Origin: Terriglobia bacterium
Lineage (GTDB): Bacteria; Acidobacteriota; Terriglobia; Bryobacterales; Bryobacteraceae
NCBI GenBank assembly: GCA_021324185.1
Contig: JAJPJN010000153.1
Span: 1-39,835, forward strand
Reading direction: 5' to 3'
Length of the DNA: 39,835 bases
Shown here: positions 3,290-24,004 of the stretch, in pieces
Position numbering within the stretch: the first letter of the stretch is position 1
How the letters are laid out: every line of letters starts with the position of its first letter
Translations under genes and position numbers: made by a program
The notes under the pieces: generated by a model
The model's input: only the letters and a program-made list of their open reading frames with translations
Told to the model about the DNA's origin: nothing
Databases searched by the model: none

Positions 3290-4210
3290 TCACAATCGTT
3301 CCCAACCGGTATGCTCCAGCGCCGGAGGGAACAGCTCGGGATGCAGTATCTCCGCGAAGATCTGAAGCGATTCCACCAGGCGCGGCCCTGGCCGGTTCAT
3401 GTACTGATTTCCATCGCAGAGGAAAACATTGCCGGTCCTTACCGCACGCATGTCGCGCCAATCCGGCCGTTCTGTGAGCCAGTGCATCTCCGAACGAGCG
3501 CGCGCCAGATCGAAGCCGCAAGGCAGAACCACGATTGCATCGGGATCAGCCTCTCGCAATTGTTCCCACGTCAGCCAGGGCGCATGCCGGCCGGCAATGC
3601 CGAAGAGATTGCGACCATTCGCCATCTGGATCAGCTCGGGAACCCAGTTCCCGGCAGCCATCAACGGCTCGAGCCATTCAATTGCAGCGACGGTGGGAGT
3701 TCGCGCCGCGCTTTTTGCTTTCTGCTGGATGGCCGCCATTCTGCCTTGTAGCGCGGAAACGAGTTGTGCTGCGGCGTCCTGACACCCACAGGCAGCGGCG
3801 ACTCGGCGGATATCGGCCCACAGATCCGCCAGCGCAAAGGGCTGGAGCGAGACTACTTGTGCGCGGGTCTGAAATTCAATTTGTAAAGCGCGCTCCACAT
3901 CGCTCAAGCTGACCGCGCAGACCTCGCATTGGGTTTGGGTGATGATGTGGGTGGGCGCCAGGCGCCTGATGAGGGCTGCGTCGACATCATAGACGCTCAA
4001 AGCGCGGCGGAGGCGATCTTTGACGAGGGCATCGATTTCGGCACTGGAGCCATTTACCGGAATCGCTGGCTTTGTGCAGATGGGAAGGGACAAGACCGAG
4101 GCAGGGAAGTCGCACTCGTGGGAGCGCCCCACCTGGAAGCTGCCGAGGCCGAGGGCATGGACGATTTCGGTAGCGCTCGAGATGAGCGGAAGCAGGCGCA
4201 GTTCGGGCAC
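3290..4210 (-). CDS. BtuF-like periplasmic-binding-fold (cobalamin-binding) protein
   Basis: A 306-aa protein starting at a GTG (4210-4208). The opening LLPLISSATEIVHALGL, GRSHECDFPASV and the later THIITQTQCEVCAVS are characteristic of the BtuF/FecB helical-backbone binding-protein fold, close to proteins annotated as cobalamin-binding. The C-terminal lobe contains PCGFDLARARSEMHWL and NVFLCDGNQYMNRPGPRLVESL. There is no signal peptide or lipobox at the start, so it may act in the cytoplasm, and no permease or ATPase gene adjoins it. Ligand is inferred from family similarity only. It converges with the ADOP gene, leaving five bases between the two stop codons. A short GAAG lies close before the start. 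Confidence 0.8.
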   Translation of the reverse strand: MPELRLLPLISSATEIVHALGLGSFQVGRSHECDFPASVLSLPICTKPAIPVNGSSAEIDALVKDRLRRALSVYDVDAALIRRLAPTHIITQTQCEVCAVSLSDVERALQIEFQTRAQVVSLQPFALADLWADIRRVAAACGCQDAAAQLVSALQGRMAAIQQKAKSAARTPTVAAIEWLEPLMAAGNWVPELIQMANGRNLFGIAGRHAPWLTWEQLREADPDAIVVLPCGFDLARARSEMHWLTERPDWRDMRAVRTGNVFLCDGNQYMNRPGPRLVESLQIFAEILHPELFPPALEHTGWERL

Positions 4211-4532
4211 GTCTTCAATATTAGGACCTGGTGAGCGCCCACTCGAGTTATAGCTCAGGGAATTCGGTTGGGTGGGCTTTGCTGTTGGGCTTTAGAAGAA
4301 TTTAACGGGTTGGGGTGTCGTGTTGCTTGTGGGTGTTAGTGGCGGAGCAACCATCGTTCCCTGAGCATATCTCTTTGATTACGCCGTACTGTATAGCACC
4401 TTTGGTGCCAAATTTGCGACTACGTATTTTCTTAGAGTTGCGGGATATCCCCGTGAGCTTGCGCACGCAGTTTTTACCTATGCAAGCAGGAAAGCATCAC
4501 AGTACCGGCGAAGAGCGGCCAGAACGGGTGAT
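4211..4532. other. 322-bp intergenic region without a convincing gene
   Basis: This stretch lies upstream of the BtuF-like gene and downstream of the TolC pair, both on the minus strand. It looks poorer in G and C than its neighbours. A 73-codon plus-strand frame (4315-4536) has no recognisable motif and runs into the TolC gene end, so I do not call it. A small GCACC-TTT-GGTGC hairpin (4394-4406 region) has no T-run on either side and is not a convincing terminator. Any promoter for the binding-protein gene should lie here, but I see no clear -35/-10 pair. Confidence 0.5.
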
Positions 4533-6533
4533 TTAATTTGACCCGGGAAGTGTCGCGGGTAGCGTGGAGGGTCGGCTGACGTGTCCGGAAAGCGCTTCCT
4601 GAAGCGTGATGTGATTGGCCTGAAGCGTGGTTCCCAGCGTCTCATCAAGCGAAACGTGCGCGTTGCTGTAGGCGACCAGCGCCGCAACCTCGCTCGATTG
4701 CGCGGCTGCCAAATCACGCTGCTGTTGGACCACGTTGTAGGTGGTGGATGCGCCTAGGGAGAACTTTTTCTGCTCGGCATCAAGCAGTTGCTGCTCCAGA
4801 ATGCGGTTGCGCACGGCTGCTTCGTATCGAGCACGCGCCTGCTGCAAAGCAACCACCTGATTGGAGACATCGACGGCAAGCTGATTGACGTCTTTTTGGA
4901 GCTGGAGCGAGTTCTGCCGGACGGTTAGTTGATCGATGGCAGCGTCTGCCAGCGCTTCTCTGTTGCGCACATTGGCAGCGATAAACGCGCCGGCACGCTC
5001 AGACGGGAAATTTCTACGAAAGACCTGGCCGAGAGCATTGCCGATTCCGCCGACAAAGTACGGATCGGGGAATTCACAAATGCTGTTGGGCGGTCCGGCC
5101 GAAGGGGGACACGGGCCGAAGCCGGGCGGAATGGTGGTCGCCCCCAACTGCTGGGAGGAACTGAAGACACGCACCGCTTTGGGCGCGCCGGAGAGGCCCT
5201 GAGCGGAAGCGCTCGCCAATCCGGCGAGTTGCGGCAAAACTCCGTTGGCCGTACCCAGGGCGGTGATTTCAGTGTTTTTCAGATTGTTTTGCTCAATGGC
5301 CAGGTCGGTTCGATTGGCGCGAGCGGTGGCAATCAGATTCTTCAGGGGCGGAAGTTCATCGTGCTCCGGAACCTCGATCCGGTCGAGAGGAATAATGTCG
5401 GCTTCGGCGAAGAGCGGGTCTGCCAAACCATTCCTGCTCAGGATGTTCTTGAGCGAGAGCTGCTGCTGTTCGAGGGTAGTCTGCGAGACGACGAGATCCT
5501 GCTGGCTGGAGGCAACCTGCGCTTCGGCAGTGGTGATATCGAGAGGAGCGAGAGTACCGATCTGCACCTGTTTCTTGTTGTTTTCAAAGAACGTCTGCGC
5601 GACATCCAATGCGGACTGCTTTGCTTTGACATCCTGGTAATCGGCAACCAGCCCGTAGTACAGATTGAGCACTTCGGAGACGATGGCGATGACCTGGCCT
5701 TTGAAGACGGTGTCAGACATGGCGAGCGTGTTTTGCGCAACCACGATGTTGCGGCTATTGACGGCGGTTCCGAACCCCTGCAAAAAGTTGTGTTGCAGCG
5801 AAATGCTGAGAGTGGTGCTGCTCGACGGGTTCAAAATATCGCTGACTGCGTTTTCGTTCAAAAAGGAATCTTTATACGAGACGCTGTATTGGCCGCCGGT
5901 GATAATGCCTTGAGTAAGCGACGTCGTATTGTTGCGTGTATCGTCGATGACGCTGTAGGTTCCCTGCGAGAGCAGCAGATTGGGCAGAAGCTGCGTGCGG
6001 TGGGAGAAGGTTTGCGTTAGCTGGAGTGTCGGGTCGAGCGATGGCGTTACCGGACCGATCTGCGAAATGGTCGCGTTCGCCGTATTGGTGTTATTCGTGC
6101 CGCCTCCGTTGATACTGACACCGGCGGCTGTCTGGGCGCCGGAAATGCCCTGGCCGCTTGCCACCGATCCGGCTTGGGATGCGCCGCTTGGAACGCCGGG
6201 TAACGCGCCGCCGGCCTGCAAACGTTCCAGACTCCAGGCATCGATCAGCGGGTTATAGCGGGCCGATTCGAGATCAATATTGTTTTCGAGCGCCAGAGCG
6301 ATGGCATCCTGCACAGTCAGGTAAACTTTGCCGGCGCGAATCAGATCGCGAATACGCAGCGAATTCGTGGTCCGCACGGGCGGGACATAGGGCGCTTCAT
6401 AGGGCCGCAGGATAACCGGGGCCTGGGGGCGGACCGGAGCAATCTGTCCCGGCCCTTGCGCCCAGCCAGGTGAAGCGCTGAGGGCGGCGAGGAGAATGAC
6501 GAACAATTGTTGCGAAAGACGGCCGCGCCTCAT
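4533..6533 (-). CDS. TolC family outer-membrane efflux protein (second of tandem pair)
   Basis: A 666-aa protein with an N-terminal signal peptide (about residues 1-25, hydrophobic FVILLAALSAS ending in WAQ). Two outer-membrane-factor repeats follow. The first contains VQDAIALALENNIDLESARY; the coiled-coil stretches carry QVQIGTLAPLDITTAEAQVASSQQ and LEQQLLDAEQKKFSLGASTTYNV, the latter a hallmark near the end of TolC proteins. Family role: trimeric beta-barrel plus helical tunnel that completes a tripartite efflux or type I secretion machine. It is longer than E. coli TolC (about 490 aa), with a low-complexity Gly/Asn/Thr-rich insert early on. Its ATG overlaps the TGA of the preceding paralogue (ATGA), so translation is coupled. 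No inner-membrane pump or adaptor gene is present in the window. Confidence 0.92.
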   Translation of the reverse strand: MRRGRLSQQLFVILLAALSASPGWAQGPGQIAPVRPQAPVILRPYEAPYVPPVRTTNSLRIRDLIRAGKVYLTVQDAIALALENNIDLESARYNPLIDAWSLERLQAGGALPGVPSGASQAGSVASGQGISGAQTAAGVSINGGGTNNTNTANATISQIGPVTPSLDPTLQLTQTFSHRTQLLPNLLLSQGTYSVIDDTRNNTTSLTQGIITGGQYSVSYKDSFLNENAVSDILNPSSSTTLSISLQHNFLQGFGTAVNSRNIVVAQNTLAMSDTVFKGQVIAIVSEVLNLYYGLVADYQDVKAKQSALDVAQTFFENNKKQVQIGTLAPLDITTAEAQVASSQQDLVVSQTTLEQQQLSLKNILSRNGLADPLFAEADIIPLDRIEVPEHDELPPLKNLIATARANRTDLAIEQNNLKNTEITALGTANGVLPQLAGLASASAQGLSGAPKAVRVFSSSQQLGATTIPPGFGPCPPSAGPPNSICEFPDPYFVGGIGNALGQVFRRNFPSERAGAFIAANVRNREALADAAIDQLTVRQNSLQLQKDVNQLAVDVSNQVVALQQARARYEAAVRNRILEQQLLDAEQKKFSLGASTTYNVVQQQRDLAAAQSSEVAALVAYSNAHVSLDETLGTTLQANHITLQEALSGHVSRPSTLPATLPGSN

Positions 6534-8428
6534 TGAATCTGCTCCGGATTGGGAAGCTGGGCCGGCAGCACGGAGGGCCGGGCCACCTGACCGGACATGG
6601 CTTCACTCAAGGAGATGTGATTGGTTTCAAGGGTGGTGCCCATGGCCTGATCAAAGGCGATGCGCGCATGGCTGTAGTTGGCCAGAGCTTGTGTTTCCTG
6701 GCTTTCCGCCGCCGCGAGCGCCTGCTCATCGGTCACGACCTGGAAAACCGTGGATGCGCCGAGGGTGTATTTTTTCTTGTCGGCGTCCAGGGTTTGCTGC
6801 TGCAGGATGCGCGCCTTGACGGCGGAGTCATAGCGCACGCGCGCCTGGCGCAGCGCAATGACGGCGTTCTGCACATCCACTCGGACCTGGTTCACCTGCT
6901 TCTGCAGAGCCAGTTCGCTCTGCCGGAGTTCCAGCGCGCTGGTCACGTAATCTGACTGCGCAGCGCGATTTCGCAGCGGGATGCTGAGCGAAAGGCCGGC
7001 CGAATAGTTGGGGAAATTGCGGCGGAAGATCTGCCCCAGCAAATTGCCGTAGCCGCCAACCAGATAGGCATCGGCGGTCTGCTTTCCCGGCAGCAGATAG
7101 TTGGAACTGCCGGTTAAGCCGTTGTTCGTCAGCTCGGCGAAAGCATTGAGCGTGGGCTTGAGGCCGTTCTTGATACCGGTCAGCAGGATCTTGTCGCTAT
7201 CAATGTTGATTTTGTCCTGTGCGACTTCGACGCGATGAGCCAGCGCGTCTTTCACCAGATCATCTATCGGCCGCAGCTCGTCGGCGGGAGGAACTTCAAA
7301 CCGATTGAGCGGAATGACGTGAACTTCTGCCAGAGTCGGGCTGGCTACACCGTTGCGGCTCAGAGCATTTTTCAGCACCGTTTCCTGCTGCAACAGGTTG
7401 GTTTGCGAAATCAGCAGGTCCTGCTGGCTGGAATAAACCTGCGCTTCGGCGCGCGTGACTTCGATGGGGGCGAGAGTCCCAATCTGCACCTGTTTTTTGT
7501 TGTCTTCATACAACGCCTGTGCGGTGGCGAGCTCGTCCTTGCGTGCTTTCAGGTCGTCGTAGAAGCTGACCAGATCCCAATAGAGATTCAGGACTGCGGA
7601 GACGGTGGTGATGACCTGCTGCTTGAAGGTCAACATAGAGATCTGCTCGTTGTTCTTTGAGACGCGAATGTTGCGGCCATTTACGGCCGGGCCAAAACCC
7701 TGCAGCAGGCTTTGGCTGACCTGCAGATCGATGTAGCCGGAAGTAAACGGGTCGAGGGCATAATCGGCGCTGTTGTATTTGTTGCGCTGGCTCAAGTAGG
7801 TCATCTGCGCGCTCATGCCCCAGACGAAATTTTGTGAATATTGTGCTTCGTAAGTGCGGCTGACGTCGATCAGGGCAGTGGTTCCGGTCAATACCAGGTT
7901 GCTTTGGGGACTGGTAGTGTGCTGGAAATTGGCGTAGAAGAACGTCTGAGGGTCCAGATTGAGCAGTGCGGGCCCGAGGTTTGTGACGATCTGGCCGCTG
8001 GAACTGACGCCCGCAGCGGCATTCGTTGTGGTGCCGCCGCTGACGAGGCTTACGCCGGTCAAGCTGACGCTTTGGGGCCCGGGCGCCACGCCCACACCCA
8101 CGCCGCGCAGCGCGCCGCCGCCTTGGGCGCGCATGGTCACTTCTTTGTTCAGCAGCGGCCCGTAACGCTGAATTTCGATATCGAGATTGTTTTCGAGCGC
8201 GAGAGCGATTACATCCTGCGCGCTCAGATATAGATTGCCGCCGCGTATGAGCGATTCGAGACGATTGGTGTTCGCCAGATTAATCGGCGGCACGGTGCGC
8301 GGCCGGTAATTCTTTGTGATCCAGCCAAAAGCGCCGCCGCTGGGGTTATCGACGCGAACAGCGCTCTGCGCTGGCAGTAGCCCGCAAAACAGAATCAACG
8401 TACACAACAGAGACAAGAATGGTTTCAT
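6530..8428 (-). CDS. TolC family outer-membrane efflux protein (first of tandem pair)
   Basis: The protein is 632 aa from the ATG at 8428; a TTG three codons earlier (8437) is an alternative. A signal peptide is clear (KPFLSLLCTLILFCGLLPAQ). The same landmarks as in its neighbour occur in the same order: AQDVIALALENNLDIEIQRY, then QVQIGTLAPIEVTRAEAQVYS and LDADKKKYTLGASTVFQVV. The two genes are paralogues, presumably from tandem duplication, that have diverged substantially. Both are probably expressed as one message from upstream of 8437. The absence of an adjoining RND, ABC or membrane-fusion gene means the partner pump is encoded elsewhere. Confidence 0.92.
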   Translation of the reverse strand: MKPFLSLLCTLILFCGLLPAQSAVRVDNPSGGAFGWITKNYRPRTVPPINLANTNRLESLIRGGNLYLSAQDVIALALENNLDIEIQRYGPLLNKEVTMRAQGGGALRGVGVGVAPGPQSVSLTGVSLVSGGTTTNAAAGVSSSGQIVTNLGPALLNLDPQTFFYANFQHTTSPQSNLVLTGTTALIDVSRTYEAQYSQNFVWGMSAQMTYLSQRNKYNSADYALDPFTSGYIDLQVSQSLLQGFGPAVNGRNIRVSKNNEQISMLTFKQQVITTVSAVLNLYWDLVSFYDDLKARKDELATAQALYEDNKKQVQIGTLAPIEVTRAEAQVYSSQQDLLISQTNLLQQETVLKNALSRNGVASPTLAEVHVIPLNRFEVPPADELRPIDDLVKDALAHRVEVAQDKINIDSDKILLTGIKNGLKPTLNAFAELTNNGLTGSSNYLLPGKQTADAYLVGGYGNLLGQIFRRNFPNYSAGLSLSIPLRNRAAQSDYVTSALELRQSELALQKQVNQVRVDVQNAVIALRQARVRYDSAVKARILQQQTLDADKKKYTLGASTVFQVVTDEQALAAAESQETQALANYSHARIAFDQAMGTTLETNHISLSEAMSGQVARPSVLPAQLPNPEQIQ

Positions 8429-16448: not shown

Positions 16449-17258
16449 CTACGGATTAATGGAAATCAATGGGAAATCGGCGCTGTCGACGTCTGTGGGC
16501 GGTTGCGCGGGTGCGGCCTCGCCGTCCAGATCGAGAAAGCGCGTATCGAGCAGGCGCGAGGTGTCCACTTTGCCCATCGCGGCCAAAAGAGTTTCTTTCA
16601 GGAACGGATGTTCTTTTTCGAGCTCAGCGAAGATGTCGCGCAACGTGCGCCGGACCGTGCCGGTCTTCTGCGAACAGCCGCAGGGAATTACAGGCGCGCC
16701 GGCGCGGCTAGCGTAAGCGCGAGTAAGCTCTTCAGTCACATAGACCAGCGGGCGGATCAGGCGGAATTCTCGCTTGCTGGACCAGGCGACAGGCGGAAGC
16801 GCGCTTATGCGCCCGGTAAACATTGCATTGCGGAGGAAGGACTCACAGAAATCGTCAGCGGTATGGCCGAAGGCGATGACATTAGCGCCCAACCGGCGCG
16901 CAATCTCGTAAACAGCGCGGCGGCGGTACCGGCTGCAGAGATCGCAGCCGTGGTCAGGCTGATCAGTTAACAGATTGAGCGAGGGCGTGTCCTGAACGTA
17001 AGTCCAATCGATGCCGCGGGCGCGCAGATATTCACCGACGGGCTGAATCGGCGCGAGAAATTTGCCTTGCTCAATCGTGAAGGCGCAGACGGTGAAGTCG
17101 ATGGGCGCGCGCTGTTCGAGAATCAGCAAGGATTCGAGCAAAGTCATGGAGTCTTTGCCGCCCGAAACGGCGACGGCGACGCGATCGCCGCCGCGAATCA
17201 TGCGGAACCTGCCGACGGCTTCGCCGACTTTACGCAGGATTGTTTTTTCCAGGTCCAA
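16449..17258 (-). CDS. TtcA-like tRNA 2-thiocytidine synthetase (PP-loop ATPase)
   Basis: A 269-aa PP-loop protein. SGGKDS lies at residues 32-37 and binds ATP. Cysteines C105 and C108 (CDLC, followed by SRYRRR) plus C193/C195 in PCGCSQKTGTVRR correspond to the Fe-S ligands of TtcA, which thiolates C32 of certain tRNAs. The pattern GHTADDFCESFLRNAMFTGRI is strongly family-typical. The C-terminal 40 residues are acidic and proline-rich and carry no recognised motif. The ATG at 17258 lies only six bases after the stop of the DUF4097 gene, so it probably rides on the ECF operon message. TtcA is the best match; the TtuA-like branch is less likely because the N-terminal zinc fingers are missing. 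Confidence 0.82.
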   Translation of the reverse strand: MDLEKTILRKVGEAVGRFRMIRGGDRVAVAVSGGKDSMTLLESLLILEQRAPIDFTVCAFTIEQGKFLAPIQPVGEYLRARGIDWTYVQDTPSLNLLTDQPDHGCDLCSRYRRRAVYEIARRLGANVIAFGHTADDFCESFLRNAMFTGRISALPPVAWSSKREFRLIRPLVYVTEELTRAYASRAGAPVIPCGCSQKTGTVRRTLRDIFAELEKEHPFLKETLLAAMGKVDTSRLLDTRFLDLDGEAAPAQPPTDVDSADFPLISINP

Positions 17259-17264
17259 CTAGCT

Positions 17265-18671
17265 TTAGCGTACCGGATACAGCAGCATCGCCGCTTTGGC
17301 AGCAGGCACGGGCTCCGCATTGGCTTTGCGAACGGTGATGGTTCCACGGCCGGTGGTAAGGACCACCTCCGGGCCGTTGCCGATGGTACCTTGCAGGCGG
17401 GCTCCGTGGCCCTGTGTCTCTTCGCGCAACTGATCGCCGAACTCGTTATCGATTTCACCGCGCTCGGTGTAGGCATTCAGTGCAAACCCGGCGCTCTCCG
17501 GCAATGCGACTTCGATATTGCCGGATCGGGTATGGATGGTCATCTTGCCTAACGGCAGATGGGCGGGCCGGAGTTCGATATCGCCTTTGTCGACATCCAT
17601 GCTCACTTCATTCGATACGCCGTTCAGTTCCACATCTGTTGCATGGGTAGTCAGTTGCAGCGGACCCACGATGTTCTGCAGGCTGAGGCTGCCGCGCTCC
17701 AGCCGCACTTCCCCCGGAACCTGCTGGATTTCGAGCTGCGTCCGAATATCAGAAACACGCACGGGCTTAGCTAACTGGCGAAGCGAGACCGTTCCGGTGT
17801 AATCGCCATTGATAGTCACCGGGCCGGTGATGTTTGTCAGCTCGACATCTTCGCCGTGCCCGCGGAGGTCTACCGCGCCTTTTACGTTGACGCAACGGAT
17901 TAGATCGCTGCGGCGCGTCTCCACCTTCGCGCTGCCGCCCAGATCCTCGAAACGCACGCCTGCGTTTTCGCTGCTCACGTCGACATCGCCGCTGATGCCG
18001 GAGATGTCGAAATCGCCATAGGTTCCAGTGGCCTCGACGCTCGCTCCTTTGGGAACGGTGATGTCGAGATACGTAGTGACGGGCGTACGCGCATCCGCTC
18101 TGTCCTGGTTGCACCGAATGATAACGGTAGTTCCCTGCTGGACAACCTCTACCGGCGTTTGATCATTGGCTTTATTTGCGTCGCCATCACCGAAAGCCCG
18201 AATTTCCTTATGACCGCTAACGCTGACCTCGTTTGAATCAGAGCTTGTGATTTTCGCGTCGCCGCGGAAGCGCTCGATGACCAGATGCGGCGCCGGCCCT
18301 ACACTTTTTTGCTGCGGTGTGACAGAGAAGTCGTGCTCCTGGCCAAAGGCCGCGAAGCCGCGCTCAAATCCAACGTTGTGCCACCAGGTTCCGGGGCGCA
18401 TCACCTCGTAGGAGGTCAAGCCGGCAATGCAGATCAGCACGACAATGACCCAGCCTCCGCCGGAAATTCCACTCAGGGGAAGTGGCGAACCCATGGCAAA
18501 GCGGATAATCACTTCAAAAAGCGCCAGTACTCCCCAGGCGATCAACAGGTAAGGCCAATACAGCCGGAACATTTCTCCGATATGAAAGTCGGGCAGCAGC
18601 GAGCGCAACAGGAAGAGCACGCCGATGAGGATCAGCACCAGCGGCCCGACAAGGGAACCTCTCGGCCTCAT
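17265..18671 (-). CDS. LiaI/LiaF-type membrane protein with DUF4097 beta-repeat domain
   Basis: A 468-aa protein from ATG 18671, which overlaps the TGA of the preceding 70-aa gene (ATGA). The frame continues to 18998 but the extra part is antisense-like text overlapping two other genes. Residues 1-60 hold a LiaI-type hairpin (GPLVLILIGVLFLLRSLLP, then a second helix), followed by a third helix (GGWVIVVLICIAGL). From about residue 130 on there are repeating short beta strands rich in Asp, Gly, Val and Thr (GDFDISGISGDVDVSSENAGVRF and similar), the DUF4097 putative adhesin fold. LiaF-like proteins monitor envelope stress in other phyla; that role here is inference. It is the last gene of the overlapping ECF-led series. 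Confidence 0.8.
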   Translation of the reverse strand: MRPRGSLVGPLVLILIGVLFLLRSLLPDFHIGEMFRLYWPYLLIAWGVLALFEVIIRFAMGSPLPLSGISGGGWVIVVLICIAGLTSYEVMRPGTWWHNVGFERGFAAFGQEHDFSVTPQQKSVGPAPHLVIERFRGDAKITSSDSNEVSVSGHKEIRAFGDGDANKANDQTPVEVVQQGTTVIIRCNQDRADARTPVTTYLDITVPKGASVEATGTYGDFDISGISGDVDVSSENAGVRFEDLGGSAKVETRRSDLIRCVNVKGAVDLRGHGEDVELTNITGPVTINGDYTGTVSLRQLAKPVRVSDIRTQLEIQQVPGEVRLERGSLSLQNIVGPLQLTTHATDVELNGVSNEVSMDVDKGDIELRPAHLPLGKMTIHTRSGNIEVALPESAGFALNAYTERGEIDNEFGDQLREETQGHGARLQGTIGNGPEVVLTTGRGTITVRKANAEPVPAAKAAMLLYPVR

Positions 18672-18880
18672 ACGTAAGGTCCTCCGGGCGGCGAAACGCG
18701 CGGGGGTCTCGCGGCCAGGCGTTCGAAAAGCTTCAATAGGCCGAGGACTATGAGAAGCAGCGGCCAGGTCCGCCAGAATGAGAGCACGCCCGCCTGGTGG
18801 ACGGCAAACAAGGCGCCCAGGGTGATCAGCAAAATCGGCGCGCGAATCGCCTGAACAAACAATGCGAGTCTGGTGTTCAC
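18668..18880 (-). CDS. Small LiaI/LiaF-like membrane protein
   Basis: A 70-aa protein consisting of almost nothing but a LiaI-type transmembrane hairpin: IRAPILLITLGALFAVH, a short polar turn with a Trp (FWRTWP), then LLLIVLGLLKLFERL and a proline-rich tail. The pattern matches the C-terminal part of the preceding gene product and the N-terminal part of the following one. ATG 18880 is two bases past the stop of the upstream gene and its TGA overlaps the next ATG. Size and packing indicate a real gene. It probably forms a membrane complex with its neighbours. Confidence 0.78.
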   Translation of the reverse strand: MNTRLALFVQAIRAPILLITLGALFAVHQAGVLSFWRTWPLLLIVLGLLKLFERLAARPPRVSPPGGPYV

Positions 18881-18882
18881 GG

Positions 18883-19620
18883 CTAGCTCCTGACGGCCGG
18901 ATCGGCTGGATTGTTAGCTGGCGGCGTGCTGGCGTACTCCTGATCGCGGGTGCGGGCGCGAAGCCCGGCGACTCTGCCATAGAGCATGTAAACGCCAACG
19001 ACGATCAGCAGCACCGGCCAGAAGCGGCCGATTTCGCGGAACTGGATCAGGTTCAAGGTATCCAGCAAGAACAACACGCCAATGGCTATCAGGACGATGG
19101 GCCCGATGGGCGCCCGGTTGGCGTAACGGCTACTACCGGTGAGACTCGACCACTCATCTACCGGCACACCCAACTGCCGTTTCTTCGCGGTATGGTATGC
19201 CTCAAACGGCATGTAAAAAATAAATCCCACCAAGGTCATCGCCAGAAACGGCTCGCTCGCGGTTCCATCGGTGCTGCTAATCAGGCTAATTAGCAGGCCG
19301 AAGATGATGGCGTGCACTAAGCCCTTCAGATACTGGCCGTTGTAGATGGCGCCGACGCCGGGAATCCAGCCAAGCAGGAAAGCCGCCACGGGGGAAGTAT
19401 CAACCGGCGGGAGTGCCGTTGGGGGCGGCGGCTGAACGTATGGATTGGCTCCCGAAGCCGCCGCGCCGGAGCCAGGTTGGGCCGTGTATACGGGAACAGG
19501 AACATGGTCCTGACAGTAGATGACGCCCTCCACAGTACGCTGGCACAGCGGGCAAAGCGCCCGGCCGCAGGAGCGGCAATAGGCTGTCGCAGGTGTTTCC
19601 GGATGTAAGTAGCAGTTCAT
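18883..19620 (-). CDS. B-box zinc finger / LiaI-like membrane protein
   Basis: A 245-aa protein with an N-terminal B-box-type zinc finger (C3, H6, C15, C18, C23, C26, C35, H38 in the first 40 residues). A proline-rich linker (about 45-75) leads to a membrane part beginning VAAFLLGWIPGVGAIYNGQY, with further hydrophobic segments near AIIFGLLISLI and FLAMTLVGFIFYM. A C-terminal LiaI-type hairpin (IGPIVLIAIGVLFLLDTL, then WPVLLIVVGVYMLYG) follows. The combination occurs in Acidobacteria next to ECF/zf-HC2 genes. The exact function is unknown; a membrane sensor or scaffold of the same stress regulon is plausible. The start overlaps the stop of the anti-sigma gene (ATGA). Confidence 0.78.
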   Translation of the reverse strand: MNCYLHPETPATAYCRSCGRALCPLCQRTVEGVIYCQDHVPVPVYTAQPGSGAAASGANPYVQPPPPTALPPVDTSPVAAFLLGWIPGVGAIYNGQYLKGLVHAIIFGLLISLISSTDGTASEPFLAMTLVGFIFYMPFEAYHTAKKRQLGVPVDEWSSLTGSSRYANRAPIGPIVLIAIGVLFLLDTLNLIQFREIGRFWPVLLIVVGVYMLYGRVAGLRARTRDQEYASTPPANNPADPAVRS

Positions 19621-20243
19621 TTTCTGTCCCCTCGTTCAGGCGGATTTGCGCCCGTATCGTTGTTCTTATTTCCCTTTTCGGGCTCAGCAGTTTTGTCCTG
19701 GCCTTGCTGTAAGGCCGCTTGTTGTTCTTGCAAAGCTTTCAACCTGGTTTCGATTTCGTAGACCCAGCGCAAATTCTCGTAGTACTTCACCGCGCGATCT
19801 TTCACACGGAAGGCCCTGTCCTCGACGTCGCCCCAGATACGGACCGGGTTGAAGTCGGCGGCCTGCAGATGCTGCACATGCACGCCGGTGCAGCGCTCTA
19901 ACATCGCGAAGGACAAAATCGTCATGGCCATGCCCATCGCTAATCGCGGCTGCAGAACGGGCTGCAACCACTTCGAAGTCAAACGGTTCCATAAGCTCTG
20001 GCGCTCGAACGGCATGCGAACACGCCCGATGGGCGCGCCATAGGCGATGCGGGTGATCAATTCCTGCGGCGGAATTACATCTTCGGCCCGCCGCAAAAAA
20101 CTAACTGCCGCGGAGGCGTCGTCGAGCAATGCACGGCAGCTCGTACAGCCAGAGGTGTGGCGTTCCAGCGCGGCGCGCTCATCCTGAGAGAGCGTGCCGT
20201 CCAGATAATCGGCCAGTAAAACTTCCGCCTCGCCGCAATTCAT
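19617..20243 (-). CDS. zf-HC2 anti-sigma factor
   Basis: A 208-aa single-pass membrane protein. The N-terminal zinc-binding anti-sigma domain has C3, H29, C33 and C36 (ERHTSGCTSC), the ZAS pattern that binds a cognate ECF sigma factor. A hydrophobic stretch near residues 100-116 (LAMGMAMTILSFAML) is the likely membrane anchor. The C-terminal, presumably extracytoplasmic half is helical and coiled-coil-like with a Gln-rich end (RLKALQEQQAALQQGQD). The gene starts three bases after the sigma-factor stop, the classic arrangement for a sigma/anti-sigma pair. Confidence 0.88.
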   Translation of the reverse strand: MNCGEAEVLLADYLDGTLSQDERAALERHTSGCTSCRALLDDASAAVSFLRRAEDVIPPQELITRIAYGAPIGRVRMPFERQSLWNRLTSKWLQPVLQPRLAMGMAMTILSFAMLERCTGVHVQHLQAADFNPVRIWGDVEDRAFRVKDRAVKYYENLRWVYEIETRLKALQEQQAALQQGQDKTAEPEKGNKNNDTGANPPERGDRK

Positions 20244-20246
20244 TTG

Positions 20247-20924
20247 CTACACCGTCACCTTTTTTCGCCTCAACACGCGCGCCAACTCAGCACGTCCTCT
20301 ATTCAACCGCGATTTCACCGTGCCCTCTGGAACATTCAAGACGTGCGCAATTTCGCGATATTCCATCTCCTGCAGGTCCCGCAGAATGACGGCCTCGCGC
20401 AACTCGGGCGAGAGCTTCTGCAGTGCTTCCTGCAGCAGTTCCCCGGCTTCGCGCCCGGCCAGCAGGCCATCGGTCCTTGAAAACTGCGCCCTTCTTTCTT
20501 CGAGAACCGGCAATTTATCTTCGATCGCGTCTGTTACCCGTTCATATTTGGTGCGGCGGTAATGATCGACCAGCAGGTTACGCGTCAACCGGGTCAACCA
20601 AACGGCAAAAGAACCTTCGCCCGCCCGAAAACTGGCAAGAGTCTTAAAGACGCGCAGAAAGACATCCTGCGTGAGGTCCTGCGCCTCATTTTCGCTGCCG
20701 GTAAAGCGGTAACAAAGCGCATACACACGTTTGGTATGTGCTTTGATCAGCTCGTCCCAGGCGCCCTGCTCGCCGGCAAGGCACCGCTCCACCAGATTTG
20801 TGTCTGCGTCCAACCGTTGTGCAGCTCCCCAAGCGGCCCAATCGACCCGGGTAGTACCTGCCGGCTTTGAGCTTAACGAATCCCGAGGCCCGAATGAAAC
20901 GGCTGCAACGGCTGCGGCTGACAT
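20247..20924 (-). CDS. ECF-subfamily RNA polymerase sigma factor
   Basis: A 225-aa sigma-70 family protein with only regions 2 and 4. Region 2 shows CYRFTGSENEAQDLTQDVFLRVFKTL and VWLTRLTRNLLVDHYRR; region 4 shows LQEMEYREIAHVLNVPEGTV followed by KSRLNRGRAEL, the DNA-binding helix-turn-helix. About 35 extra residues at the N-terminus are Ala/Ser-rich. GAGGG sits a few bases before the ATG at 20924. It heads a minus-strand operon with the anti-sigma gene and three membrane-protein genes, so it most likely responds to envelope conditions and may activate its own promoter. Confidence 0.92.
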   Translation of the reverse strand: MSAAAVAAVSFGPRDSLSSKPAGTTRVDWAAWGAAQRLDADTNLVERCLAGEQGAWDELIKAHTKRVYALCYRFTGSENEAQDLTQDVFLRVFKTLASFRAGEGSFAVWLTRLTRNLLVDHYRRTKYERVTDAIEDKLPVLEERRAQFSRTDGLLAGREAGELLQEALQKLSPELREAVILRDLQEMEYREIAHVLNVPEGTVKSRLNRGRAELARVLRRKKVTV

Positions 20925-20934
20925 CTCACCCTCA

Positions 20935-20961
20935 TAAACGAAATCCGGGGGTCGAAAGTTC
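20935..20961 (-). promoter_or_regulatory. Possible ECF-type autoregulated promoter
   Basis: On the minus strand GAACTT (20961-20956) is separated by 15 bases from CGTTTA (20940-20935), close to the GAAC...CGT layout used by many ECF sigma factors. A start from here would fall within a few bases of the ATG at 20924, leaving the GAGGG at the edge of the transcript, which weakens the case. Confidence 0.25.
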
Positions 20962-21002: not shown

Positions 21003-21506
21003 CTAAGCCGGCCAGATGTCCGTCAGCGGCAGCACGAAATGGGCCGCCCGCAGGACGCCGTCCTTTACCTGGTGGACCCCGTCCTCGTCAGCGACCCAGG
21101 CCAGCCGGTCGCTTGGTTCCAGAATCCAGCAGGTGGGTACGCCGATCTGGAGATAGTCCTGGATGCGGCGCATAATGGCCCTCATCGTGTCGTCTTTGGA
21201 CAGAATTTCGATGCAGAGCAGGGGCGCCTGACGAACGATCGGGTCCCACGGCGCATCGGCGGTCAGGACCATCAGATCGGGAATCCGGAACCGGGTCGGG
21301 GTAATTTGCAGCCGGCACTCCGTAAGAGGCCGGATATTCAACTCCTGGACCCGCAACATTAGCCACGACACGAGTTTTGCCTGTACCCAGGCATGTATCT
21401 GTTCGCCCATGTTGCGCTCGATCAGTTCGCCGTCGATGTAGTCGCAATCCGGCCGGTACGTGGTTGCGAGATATTCTTGGAGTGAAACCTGCGTTCCAGC
21501 CGCCAT
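21003..21506 (-). CDS. Uma2 family protein (DUF820, putative PD-(D/E)XK endonuclease)
   Basis: A 167-aa protein of the Uma2/DUF820 family. YIDGELIERNMGEQIHAWVQ at the front, RIPDLMVL in the middle (the Asp of the predicted nuclease core) and LCIEILSKDD (Glu of the core) define the PD-(D/E)XK-like fold. The later PTCWILEPSDRLAW is typical too. Uma2 proteins are common in cyanobacteria and Acidobacteria, often in many copies, and their biological role is unknown. It stands alone between the ECF operon and divergent nrdR. Confidence 0.88.
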   Translation of the reverse strand: MAAGTQVSLQEYLATTYRPDCDYIDGELIERNMGEQIHAWVQAKLVSWLMLRVQELNIRPLTECRLQITPTRFRIPDLMVLTADAPWDPIVRQAPLLCIEILSKDDTMRAIMRRIQDYLQIGVPTCWILEPSDRLAWVADEDGVHQVKDGVLRAAHFVLPLTDIWPA

Positions 21507-21568: not shown

Positions 21569-22030
21569 ATGACCTGCCCGTTTTGCGGCCATAAAGAAGA
21601 CAAGGTAATAGATTCACGTGAGGGAAAAGAAGGCGATTCCATCCGGCGGAGGCGCCAATGTCTCGCTTGTGAGCGCCGGTTCACGACCTACGAACGATGC
21701 GACGAAGTCCCTTACATGGTCATCAAAAAAGATGGTCGCCGCGAGAAGTTTGACCGTCAGAAGGTGCTGAACGGGCTCATTCGGGCTTGCGAGAAGCGCC
21801 CCGTGAGCATGGGAAAACTGGCTGAGCTGGTAGACGACGTAGAATCGGCCCTTTTGGAGAGTCCGGAACGCGAAATCCCTACCACTGCAATAGGCGAGCG
21901 GCTGATGGAGCGCCTGCGCACGCTCGACAAGATCGCATACGTCCGCTTTGCTTCCGTTTACCGGGATTTTCAAGATATTGAAGAATTCCTGAGCGAACTG
22001 AAAAACGTTATGCGGCAGAGGAAAGTCTAA
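21569..22030 (+). CDS. nrdR: Transcriptional repressor NrdR
   Basis: A 153-aa repressor of ribonucleotide reductase genes that senses ATP/dATP. A zinc ribbon is formed by C3, C6, C31 and C34 (TCPFCGHKEDKVIDSR, QCLACERRFTTYER), followed by an ATP-cone domain (about residues 49-139, IKKDGRREKFDRQKVLNGL). Length and both domains match the family exactly. No nrd gene lies in the window. rpoD follows in the same direction after a 438-bp gap with its own promoter. Confidence 0.96.
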   Translation: MTCPFCGHKEDKVIDSREGKEGDSIRRRRQCLACERRFTTYERCDEVPYMVIKKDGRREKFDRQKVLNGLIRACEKRPVSMGKLAELVDDVESALLESPEREIPTTAIGERLMERLRTLDKIAYVRFASVYRDFQDIEEFLSELKNVMRQRKV

Positions 22031-22468: not shown

Positions 22469-24004
22469 GTGGATCAATTCGAGGATCAATTTCTAAGCGA
22501 GGGTAACGAGCCTTTAGCAATCCCGTTCGATGAAGATACCAACTTCTTTCATCCGGAAGAAGTTCAGGACGAAGATTTTCATGGCGCCCAACAGGTCGAA
22601 GAGTCAATTTATACCGACGACCCGGTACGCGTGTACCTGCGCGAGATGGGTTCGGTGCCGCTGCTTACCCGCGAAGGCGAAGTCAACCTGGCGCGGAAAA
22701 TGGAGCGCGGCAAGCTGCGGATGCAGAAGGCAATCAGCCGTTCTCCACTCATTCAGAGCATTGTTAGCGAATTTGCCGAACTGGTCCGTAAAGGCGCCGA
22801 GGACGTCGATAGCTACGTAGATTTTCCGCCCTCGGACATCGAAGAGGGAAGCGCGGCCGACATCAAGCGCCGCAACGAGATCAGCGAGTTGTTTGGGGCT
22901 TATTTAGCCGCTTACAAAAAGCTGCAGCAGACGATTGATAAGCATGCAACCGTGCCCCCCGCAAACAAAAAGCTGCGGAAGAAATGGGCCGGAAAAATTG
23001 CGCGCGCCAAAGTAGAGTTGTCGCGAGCGCTGCGAGCCATTCCGTTCAACCTGGCTCGTTGGAAGGAATTCGTCCGGGCTGTCGAGAAGACAGCCGACGA
23101 AATGTCGCTTCTCGAGGTCGAGATTCGCAAACTGGAGACGCGCAACTCTGCTTCTGCCCAACTGCGGGTCAAAGAACTTAAGCGCGATCTGAAGAAAAAA
23201 GAGAGCGAGGCGGGCGCTTCGCTGCCCGACCTGCGCCACAGCCTGTCGGTTATCCGGCACGGCGAAGTGGAAGCTGAACGAGCCAAGAAGGATCTGGTTG
23301 AGGCCAATCTTCGGCTGGTGGTTTCGGTCGCCAAGAAGTATGTCAACCGCGGCCTGCACCTTTTGGATCTGATCCAGGAGGGCAATATCGGGCTTATGCG
23401 CGCTGCCGATAAATTTGAGTACCGGCGCGGCTACAAATTTTCGACCTACGCCACATGGTGGATTCGACAGGCGATCACGCGTGCAATTGCCGATCAATCC
23501 AGGACGATTCGCATTCCTGTTCATATGAACGAGAGTATGAACAAGTTTCTGCGTGCGACGCGCGAGCTCGAAAAAGAGCTGGGCCGCGTTCCGACCAATG
23601 AAGAGATCAGCCGGCGCATGGATATTCCGGTTGAAAAGGTCCAGAAGCTGAAGACGATTTCGCGTGACCCGGTTTCACTCGAGACGCCAGTGGGCCGCGA
23701 CGGCGAATCTGCGCTGGGCGATCTGATCGAGGACCGCTGGGTGGGCTCGCCCGTGGATGCTGTCATCGATTCGAACGTCCGTGACGAGACTGCGAACATT
23801 CTGAAGACTCTTTCGCCTAAGGAAGAGAAGGTGATTCGTCTGCGGTTCGGCATCGGCTGCGAACGCGAGCACACGCTCGAGGAGATCGGACAAGAGTTCG
23901 ATGTGACGCGAGAGCGTATTCGTCAAATCGAAGCCAAAGCATTGCGGCAGCTACGATCACCCGAACGCGCGCGGCACCTGCGGGCTTTACTGGCAGCACG
24001 TTAG
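22469..24004 (+). CDS. rpoD: Primary RNA polymerase sigma factor (sigma-70)
   Basis: A 511-aa housekeeping sigma factor from GTG 22469. Region 1.2 ([18 protein letters not shown]), a charged non-conserved region (about residues 95-270), region 2 ([59 protein letters not shown]), region 3 ([19 protein letters not shown]) and region 4 ([17 protein letters not shown], then the helix-turn-helix [20 protein letters not shown]) are all complete. It lacks the acidic region 1.1 of the E. coli protein, having only a short acidic N-terminus. It is transcribed alone from the promoter at 22152; the usual dnaG partner is absent upstream. Confidence 0.97.

What the first reader, a model, noticed from the sequence alone, without database searches (positions are those of the whole stretch)
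17265..20924. Three consecutive genes with homologous LiaI-type hairpins under an ECF sigma factor
The B-box protein (C-terminus), the 70-aa protein and the DUF4097 protein (N-terminus) each hold the same two-helix unit with a polar turn and conserved P(L/V)L(L/I)IVxG second helix. All five genes are chained by overlaps or gaps of two to three bases. This looks like one hairpin copied three times and linked to a zinc finger or a beta-repeat domain: an envelope-stress module analogous to, but different from, Bacillus LiaFSR.
Basis: partly seen in the sequence, partly recalled or inferred. Interest (0 to 1): 0.52.

Follow-up and report, generated by a model that had tools for sequence, protein, structure and literature searches.

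The report
Self-switching envelope-stress operon of Acidobacteria
Five neighbouring genes in a soil Acidobacterium form an old, self-activating switch that probably senses damage to the cell envelope; three of the proteins share the same small membrane hairpin, related to one known from Bacillus.

Summary
Five minus-strand genes (17265-20924) are chained as described: ECF sigma, zf-HC2 anti-sigma, B-box membrane protein, 70-aa protein, Toastrack DUF4097. All three hairpins pass Pfam's cut-off for PF18917, LiaI-LiaF-like_TM1, and resemble each other beyond chance: 0 of 2000 shuffles in each of six comparisons. They are homologs of the LiaI/LiaF hairpin, not mere analogs.

The operon is widespread in the phylum and keeps three position-specific hairpin classes (108 of 113 assigned correctly when left out). 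The middle hairpin is fused to the B-box protein in 11 genomes of two genera and to the Toastrack protein in others.

A promoter GAACTT-N15-CGTTTA precedes the sigma gene; GAACT-N16-CGT recurs in all 17 places examined. The genome has only three strict sites, so the sigma factor seems mainly to drive its own operon. Helix counts and signal peptides of sister proteins point to a Toastrack domain outside the cytoplasm, against the published inference.

Toastrack, LiaI-LiaF-TM, B-box variants and a linked sigma factor are in print in general terms (Ravi 2024): a new variant of a known kind. Inducer and protein contacts are inferred.

The parts
20935..20961 (-). ECF-type promoter GAACTT-N15-CGTTTA, 10 bases before the sigma start codon
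   Evidence: GAACT-N16-CGT upstream of the sigma gene in 17 of 17 places examined, exactly GAACTT-N15-CGTTTA in 8 of them (no shuffle control there); coordinates; 13 of 20 strict sites in the 40 genomes lie directly before this sigma gene
20247..20924 (-). ECF sigma factor, 225 aa
   Evidence: PF04542 and PF08281; closest solved relatives SigE and SigW
19617..20243 (-). zf-HC2 (ZAS-type) anti-sigma factor, 208 aa, with a short, highly conserved hydrophobic stretch (residues ~101-115) and a conserved region after it
   Evidence: PF13490; profile matches RsiW 5wuq, E 1.2e-9; conservation by region
18883..19620 (-). B-box zinc finger + TM segment with IPGVGAIYNGQY motif + LiaI-type hairpin, 245 aa
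   Evidence: PF00643 25.0 bits (cut-off 24.1), PF18917 48.0 (cut-off 27); alignment A1
18982..19107 (-). hairpin, class b
   Evidence: PF18917 match
18668..18880 (-). 70-aa stand-alone hairpin protein (GTG start)
   Evidence: PF18917 32.1 bits; orthologs in alignment A4
18731..18838 (-). hairpin, class s
   Evidence: PF18917 match
17265..18671 (-). hairpin + third TM helix + Toastrack DUF4097 protein, 468 aa
   Evidence: PF13349 52.3 bits, PF18917 27.6 bits; model pLDDT mostly above 90 over 111-450, low before it
18525..18653 (-). hairpin, class t
   Evidence: PF18917 match
17331..18206 (-). Toastrack (DUF4097) domain
   Evidence: PF13349 match; fold matches 4qrk, 3lyc_A and 4ygu_C by Foldseek at E<=0.001, 3lyc_A Z 13.4, rmsd 3.5, 215 aligned

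Best explanation
This is a self-contained, positively autoregulated ECF envelope-stress operon. SHOWN by sequence: an ECF sigma factor and a ZAS anti-sigma factor, both nearest to the SigE/SigW-RsiW kind among solved proteins, are chained with three membrane proteins that carry homologous LiaI/LiaF-type hairpins, behind a conserved ECF-type promoter whose strict form is otherwise almost absent from the genome. INFERRED: in the resting cell the anti-sigma factor holds the sigma factor at the inner membrane, where the B-box protein, the small hairpin protein and the Toastrack protein assemble with it through their hairpins, as LiaF is thought to do with LiaS. The Toastrack domain faces the periplasm. 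When the membrane or wall is disturbed, the hairpin/Toastrack complex changes or the anti-sigma factor is cleaved, the sigma factor is freed and transcribes its own operon. The membrane proteins that are made then both stabilise the envelope and, once in excess, capture the anti-sigma/sigma pair again and switch the response off.
For: Gene order is the same in L007-L020 (14 loci, some cut at contig ends); in L021 the small hairpin is fused to the Toastrack protein and in L022 the Toastrack gene lies 1.9 kb away. In 40 loci of 40 phylum genomes, chosen by the B-box-protein profile, an ECF sigma gene lies nearby in 37; the 3 misses end at a contig edge. Promoter GAACT-N16-CGT in 17 of 17 near places and above shuffles across the phylum: 17 of 36 at score 9.5 or more, against 1.4% of shuffles. 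Three strict sites in the own genome, the other two inside coding frames; 13 of 20 strict sites in 40 genomes precede this sigma gene. Fusions of the small hairpin with either neighbour suggest that the parts meet. ZAS closest to RsiW, ECF closest to SigE and SigW. An nrdR-like gene stands divergently nearby in 23 of 57 loci, which speaks for vertical descent. The Toastrack side rests.
Against: No contact between the proteins and no inducer was tested. The helix in the anti-sigma factor is marginal: simple hydropathy found it in 7 of 18 orthologs and not in the window's own. Toastrack is missing in 13 of 40 loci and the B-box in others, so neither is essential to the switch. The total of strict promoter sites (20) does not exceed its reversed-pattern control (23 by my hand sum), so only the position before the sigma gene, not the number of sites, carries the argument; a looser regulon would be missed. 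In one search, 19 of 36 loci score below 9.5, several no better than shuffles. For the three-helix Toastrack proteins, the window's included, basic residues around the last helix do not decide the side (window 1 before, 1 after). Ravi et al. 2024 infer Toastrack to be intracellular.
Confidence: 0.6

Rival explanations
1. The hairpin and Toastrack proteins are only the output (membrane-protective effectors, LiaI/LiaG-like) and take no part in sensing; the anti-sigma factor alone senses the stress.
For: The operon is nearly the only strict target of its own promoter, so its products should include the response; Toastrack and the small gene are missing in part of the phylum, as accessory effectors might be.
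Against: Wherever the TM/hairpin protein was found and the contig runs on, an ECF gene is nearby (37 of 37), as expected of a regulator; the reverse, ECF without it, was not tested. Small-hairpin fusions to the B-box protein bring it next to a zinc domain.
Confidence: 0.25
2. The hairpins are just convenient membrane anchors; their shared ancestry has no functional meaning and the three proteins do not meet.
For: PF18917 hairpins occur in other contexts, including a second locus of this genome; in several families the Toastrack protein has no recognised hairpin and a single anchor helix instead.
Against: Position-specific classes kept apart over the sampled phylum (108 of 113) and fusions in both directions are not expected of mere anchors.
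Confidence: 0.12
3. The operon is not an envelope-stress system but a redox or metal responder that uses the two zinc domains (ZAS and B-box) as sensors.
For: Two cysteine-rich zinc modules, with C3, H6, C15, C18, C23 and C36 of the B-box invariant or nearly so in alignment A1; zinc anti-sigma factors such as RsrA sense thiol stress (recalled).
Against: The ZAS profile matches the membrane anti-sigma RsiW best among solved proteins; the B-box is not found in many of the orthologous proteins; LiaI/LiaF and Toastrack families are tied to the envelope in print (passages).
Confidence: 0.08

Closest known systems
LiaI-LiaF-TM / Toastrack contexts of the extended PSP system (Ravi et al. 2024, PMC11237479; passages seen)
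   Same: Same hairpin family and Toastrack domain; the text mentions variants with B-box and an operonically linked sigma factor, and proposes membrane-stress signalling.
   Different: The printed four-gene context centres on a DUF2089-like ZnR-HTH-SHOCT protein; the main text has 0 hits for 'anti-sigma' and 0 for 'Acidobacteri'; it places Toastrack in the cytoplasm. Figures and supplements could not be seen, so this layout may be in them.
Bacillus LiaIHGFSR
   Same: LiaI, LiaF and LiaG have counterparts here (hairpin protein, hairpin + Toastrack; NCBIfam LiaG matches at 43.1 bits, far under its cut-off of 285).
   Different: No LiaS/LiaR or LiaH among the five genes; an ECF/anti-sigma pair takes the regulator's place. 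PspA-family genes exist elsewhere in the genome.
SigW/RsiW of Bacillus subtilis
   Same: ECF + zf-HC2 anti-sigma; RsiW is the best solved match of the anti-sigma, SigE and SigW the best of the sigma factor.
   Different: The RsiW match covers positions 1-77 of the profile only (the solved RsiW chain is itself just 80 residues); three further membrane genes are chained to the pair here; the strict promoter is found almost only at the operon itself.
LytTR regulatory systems with LiaF-like membrane inhibitors (Zou et al. 2018, PMC6193735; passages seen)
   Same: A LiaF-like membrane protein next to a transcription regulator; a locus of a similar kind lies on contig C85 of this genome.
   Different: LytTR regulator instead of a sigma factor; the C85 locus also has a histidine kinase and receiver domain; the authors report finding no anti-sigma factor with DUF3021 or DUF2154.

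Membership tests
LiaI-LiaF-like hairpin family (PF18917) | Score above Pfam's cut-off of 27 bits | tested here: met
   48.0, 32.1 and 27.6 bits; the third only just
LiaF-TM (PF22570) | Score above 27 bits over the tandem two-hairpin domain | tested here: inconclusive
   B-box protein 36.9 and small protein 28.4 pass but cover only the first half (up to position 45 of 98); Toastrack protein 25.7 over 2-87 fails. The fused protein of L063 covers 2-95 with 34.3 bits
Toastrack / DUF4097 (PF13349) | Pfam score and Toastrack beta-helix fold | tested here: met
   52.3 bits, cut-off 22.9; Foldseek 4qrk E 5.6e-6; 3lyc_A Z 13.4, rmsd 3.5, 215 aligned
ECF sigma factor | Regions 2 and 4 without region 3 | tested here: met
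   Region-2 and region-4 families over their cut-offs, no region-3 family listed; TIGR02937 111.1 bits, cut-off 42.9. ECF group number not tested
ZAS anti-sigma factor | zf-HC2 domain with H-x3-C-x2-C and adjacent sigma gene | tested here: met
   PF13490 39.7 bits, cut-off 22.2; C3, H29, C33, C36 invariant in A3; RsiW match
ZAS anti-sigma factor | Binds and inhibits its sigma factor | not testable with these tools
   Inferred from family and gene order
Membrane-anchored anti-sigma factor | Transmembrane helix after the ZAS domain | tested here: inconclusive
   Hydropathy finds a helix in 7 of 18 orthologs, not in the window's own
LiaFSR system | LiaS/LiaR two-component pair in the operon | tested here: not met
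   No kinase or response regulator among the five genes
PSP system proper | PspA in the operon | tested here: not met
   Not among the five genes; two PspA_IM30 matches over the cut-off elsewhere in the genome

The most novel reading that the evidence does not exclude
An ECF-sigma arm of the Lia world: a LiaI/LiaF hairpin set acts directly on a zinc anti-sigma factor inside the membrane, with the hairpin as a movable docking unit that hops between partner proteins, and with a Toastrack domain that reads the periplasm rather than the cytoplasm. The loop is closed: the sigma factor's main target is its own sensor/effector operon, which stays near nrdR in lineages far apart in the phylum.
Probability: 0.35. 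Interest if true: 0.55.

Novelty: new variant of a known kind. Interest (0 to 1): 0.42.

Why it matters
It ties the LiaI/LiaF hairpin, known from two-component systems of Gram-positive bacteria, to an ECF sigma/anti-sigma switch that is widespread in a major soil phylum, and supplies a precise promoter and a set of natural fusions that make the complex testable. It also gives a sequence-based argument that Toastrack domains can lie outside the cytoplasm, an open point for LiaG/LiaX-type proteins.

Tried and rejected
Chance similarity of hydrophobic helices: rejected. Recent triple copying within the operon: rejected by position-specific classes; five of 113 were misassigned (s to b 2, s to t 2, t to s 1), and since only one locus is left out at a time, near relatives stay in the training set. 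The fusion test is not perfect: of four two-hairpin Toastrack proteins, the first hairpin is class s in 3 (L080 is scored b; L081 only 26.1 against 23.8) and the second class t in 3 (L069 is scored s). Wide regulon: no support at strict stringency; looser patterns were not searched in genomes because chance sites would swamp them. The tRNA-modification-type gene directly downstream (16449-17258) as a sixth member: no match at E<=1e-15 in any of 57 loci. B-box model: Foldseek gave nothing at E<=0.001 and only weak zinc-domain (LIM) rows, inconclusive. Complex prediction: no tool for it. Distribution outside the phylum: not searched beyond, which finds close relatives only. In print: the listings showed no paper on this operon apart from the general text of Ravi et al.; the library holds only open-licence papers, I judged most from title and abstract start, and figures and supplements were not open.

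L014 was left out of the promoter count because its sigma gene is cut. The 40 loci are my pick from the 148 matching genomes, mostly one per family, so their shares are not phylum frequencies. In one search four loci (L024, L069, L082, L098) were left out by the script; 4 of 44 frames gave an even helix count (L021, L061, L081, L085), which I read by eye as a missed helix or a stretch before the true start.
Full report
WHAT IS THERE. The window is contig C142 of a 4.7-Mb genome whose nearest named relatives are Acidobacteria, mostly MAGs, labelled Bryobacteraceae, Bryobacterales or Acidobacteriaceae. Five genes run on the minus strand from 20924 to 17265 with gaps or overlaps of 3, -4, 2 and -4 bases. 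Pfam: ECF sigma factor; zf-HC2 anti-sigma factor; B-box zinc finger plus PF18917 hairpin; a 70-aa protein that is little more than the hairpin; and a Toastrack (DUF4097) protein with the hairpin at its N-terminus. All three hairpins pass the curated cut-off of PF18917, the Toastrack one narrowly (27.6 against 27).

CHANCE. With profiles from 14 sequences per position, each window hairpin is recognised by the other two profiles at 22.6-39.4 bits; 2000 composition-preserving shuffles per comparison reach at most 14.3. Of 176 real two-helix segments from the window and related loci, 82 scored 15 bits or more with the family model and were set aside; the remaining 94 reach at most 14.9. Among the orthologs the lowest cross-score is 12.8 (all). 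The likeness is homology.

AGE AND LAYOUT. One search gave 17 relatives; in L007-L020 the five genes are in the same order (L014's sigma gene and the Toastrack genes of L007 and L008 are cut by contig ends), and the small>Toastrack junction is the same 4-base overlap in 12 of those 14. In L021 the small hairpin is part of the Toastrack protein; in L022 the Toastrack gene lies 1.9 kb further on. A profile of the B-box protein finds a match in 148 of 199 genomes of the phylum at E<=0.001; many of these are weak or hairpin-only, and by my hand count 102 have a best E of 1e-15 or less. I took 40 loci from 40 of these genomes: ECF gene nearby in 37 (the other three, L076, L085 and L091, stop at a contig edge), anti-sigma recognised in 34, hairpin on the B-box/TM protein recognised in 34, Toastrack in 27, separate small hairpin gene in 19. 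The B-box itself is not recognised in a number of them. So in loci picked by the TM/hairpin protein the ECF gene is its steadiest companion; ECF genes without it were not surveyed. An nrdR-like gene stands divergently nearby in 23 of 57 loci and a sigA-like gene in 12, as in the window (21569-22030 and 22469-24004); these two names are my reading of the sequences, not a family scan.

THREE CLASSES AND FUSIONS. Leave-one-locus-out profiles assign 108 of 113 hairpins to their own position (b 50 of 50, s 30 of 34, t 28 of 29). This fits three copies that diverged before the sampled lineages split. The small hairpin is fused to the B-box protein in 11 genomes of two genera (among 29 loci), and the second hairpin of the two examples scored, L063 and L064, is class s. 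Two hairpins stand before the Toastrack domain in L021, L069, L080 and L081; there the first scores as s in 3 of 4 and the second as t in 3 of 4. Two hairpins in tandem make the LiaF-TM domain (L063 covers 2-95 of 98). In many families the Toastrack protein has no recognised hairpin but a single N-terminal helix that resembles the third helix of the window protein (by eye).

PROMOTER. Upstream of the sigma gene in the window and 16 relatives lies GAACT-N16-CGT, exactly GAACTT-N15-CGTTTA in 8 of the 17, with the -35 element 35-138 bases before the start (17 of 17; no shuffle control in that call). Across 36 phylum loci, 17 score 9.5 or more against 1.4% of shuffles, and 26 score 8.5 or more against 18%; the rest are individually no better than chance. 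The own genome has three strict sites: this one, and two inside coding frames, one of them 94 bases before a further gene. In the 40 genomes, own included, there are 20 strict sites; 13 lie directly before the sigma gene of this operon. The reversed-pattern control has 23 hits, so there is no sign of a broad strict regulon.

WHICH SIDE. Predicted helices before the Toastrack domain number 1, 3 or 5 in 40 of 44 proteins. Of the 11 single-helix forms, 9 have more basic residues before the helix than after it, 1 a tie and 1 the reverse, which points to an N-inside, Toastrack-outside arrangement; in the three-helix forms the charges around the last helix do not decide. One extra Toastrack gene in L089 has a lipobox-like LVGC, and the Toastrack proteins on contigs C51 and C90 of the own genome begin with signal-peptide-like stretches (by eye). 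Ravi et al. argue for an intracellular domain (passages). For this group the sequence evidence leans the other way; it is not proof.

ANTI-SIGMA. The ZAS part matches RsiW (5wuq, E 1.2e-9) and the sigma factor is nearest SigE and SigW among solved proteins. The stretch around the short hydrophobic segment is the best conserved part of the anti-sigma factor (mean majority share 0.90, against 0.69 for the ZAS domain and 0.75 after the segment, window plus L007-L020), which suggests that it binds something in or at the membrane. Whether it truly crosses is open (7 of 18 by hydropathy, not the window's own).

STRUCTURE. The Toastrack model is confident over 111-450 and matches known Toastrack folds. 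The helices before it are low confidence. In the B-box model only the N-terminal 40 residues are very confident, with no clear fold match.

SECOND LIA-LIKE LOCUS. Contig C85 carries a LiaI-like protein (PF18917 27.2, cut-off 27), a two-hairpin protein with a sub-threshold LiaF C-terminal match (25.9, cut-off 29), a His_kinase and a LytTR response regulator. Its three hairpins score best as class b. The genome thus seems to run a LytTR-linked and an ECF-linked Lia-like system in parallel.

JUDGEMENT. Shown: gene content, homology of hairpins, position classes, fusions, conserved promoter, conserved ECF neighbourhood. Inferred: anti-sigma function, complex formation through hairpins, envelope signal, periplasmic Toastrack, feedback. 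The parts and the general idea of a Toastrack context with a linked sigma factor are in print; this ECF/anti-sigma layout with its promoter and fusions I did not find in print in the searches named under Tried and rejected.

Noticed in passing
L024 (contig C85 of the same genome), 3883-6867: A second LiaI/LiaF-like pair next to a LytS-type histidine kinase and a LytTR response regulator; three PF18917 hairpins in two proteins.
   Followed up: partly
L089 2736-6278: Two Toastrack genes in tandem, the further one with a lipobox-like start, and an ECF gene directly before the B-box gene with no zf-HC2 gene recognised between them.
   Followed up: no
B-box protein, window residues 75-150 (about 19171-19398): A strongly conserved membrane segment with the motif IPGVGAIYNGQYLKG that no Pfam family claims over its cut-off; it is also there where the B-box is missing. 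All 40 phylum loci have it, but they were picked with a profile that includes it.
   Followed up: partly
window 16449-17258 (-): A PP-loop (PF01171) gene of tRNA-modification type begins 6 bases after the operon but has no match at E<=1e-15 in any of 57 related loci.
   Followed up: yes
window 21003-21506 (-): A Uma2 (PF05685) gene sits between the operon and the nrdR-like gene.
   Followed up: no
anti-sigma factor, window residues ~93-175: The hydrophobic stretch and the region after it (KWLQPxLQPRLAMGMAMTILSFAML...YYENLRxVYEIETRL) are better conserved than the zinc domain itself.
   Followed up: partly
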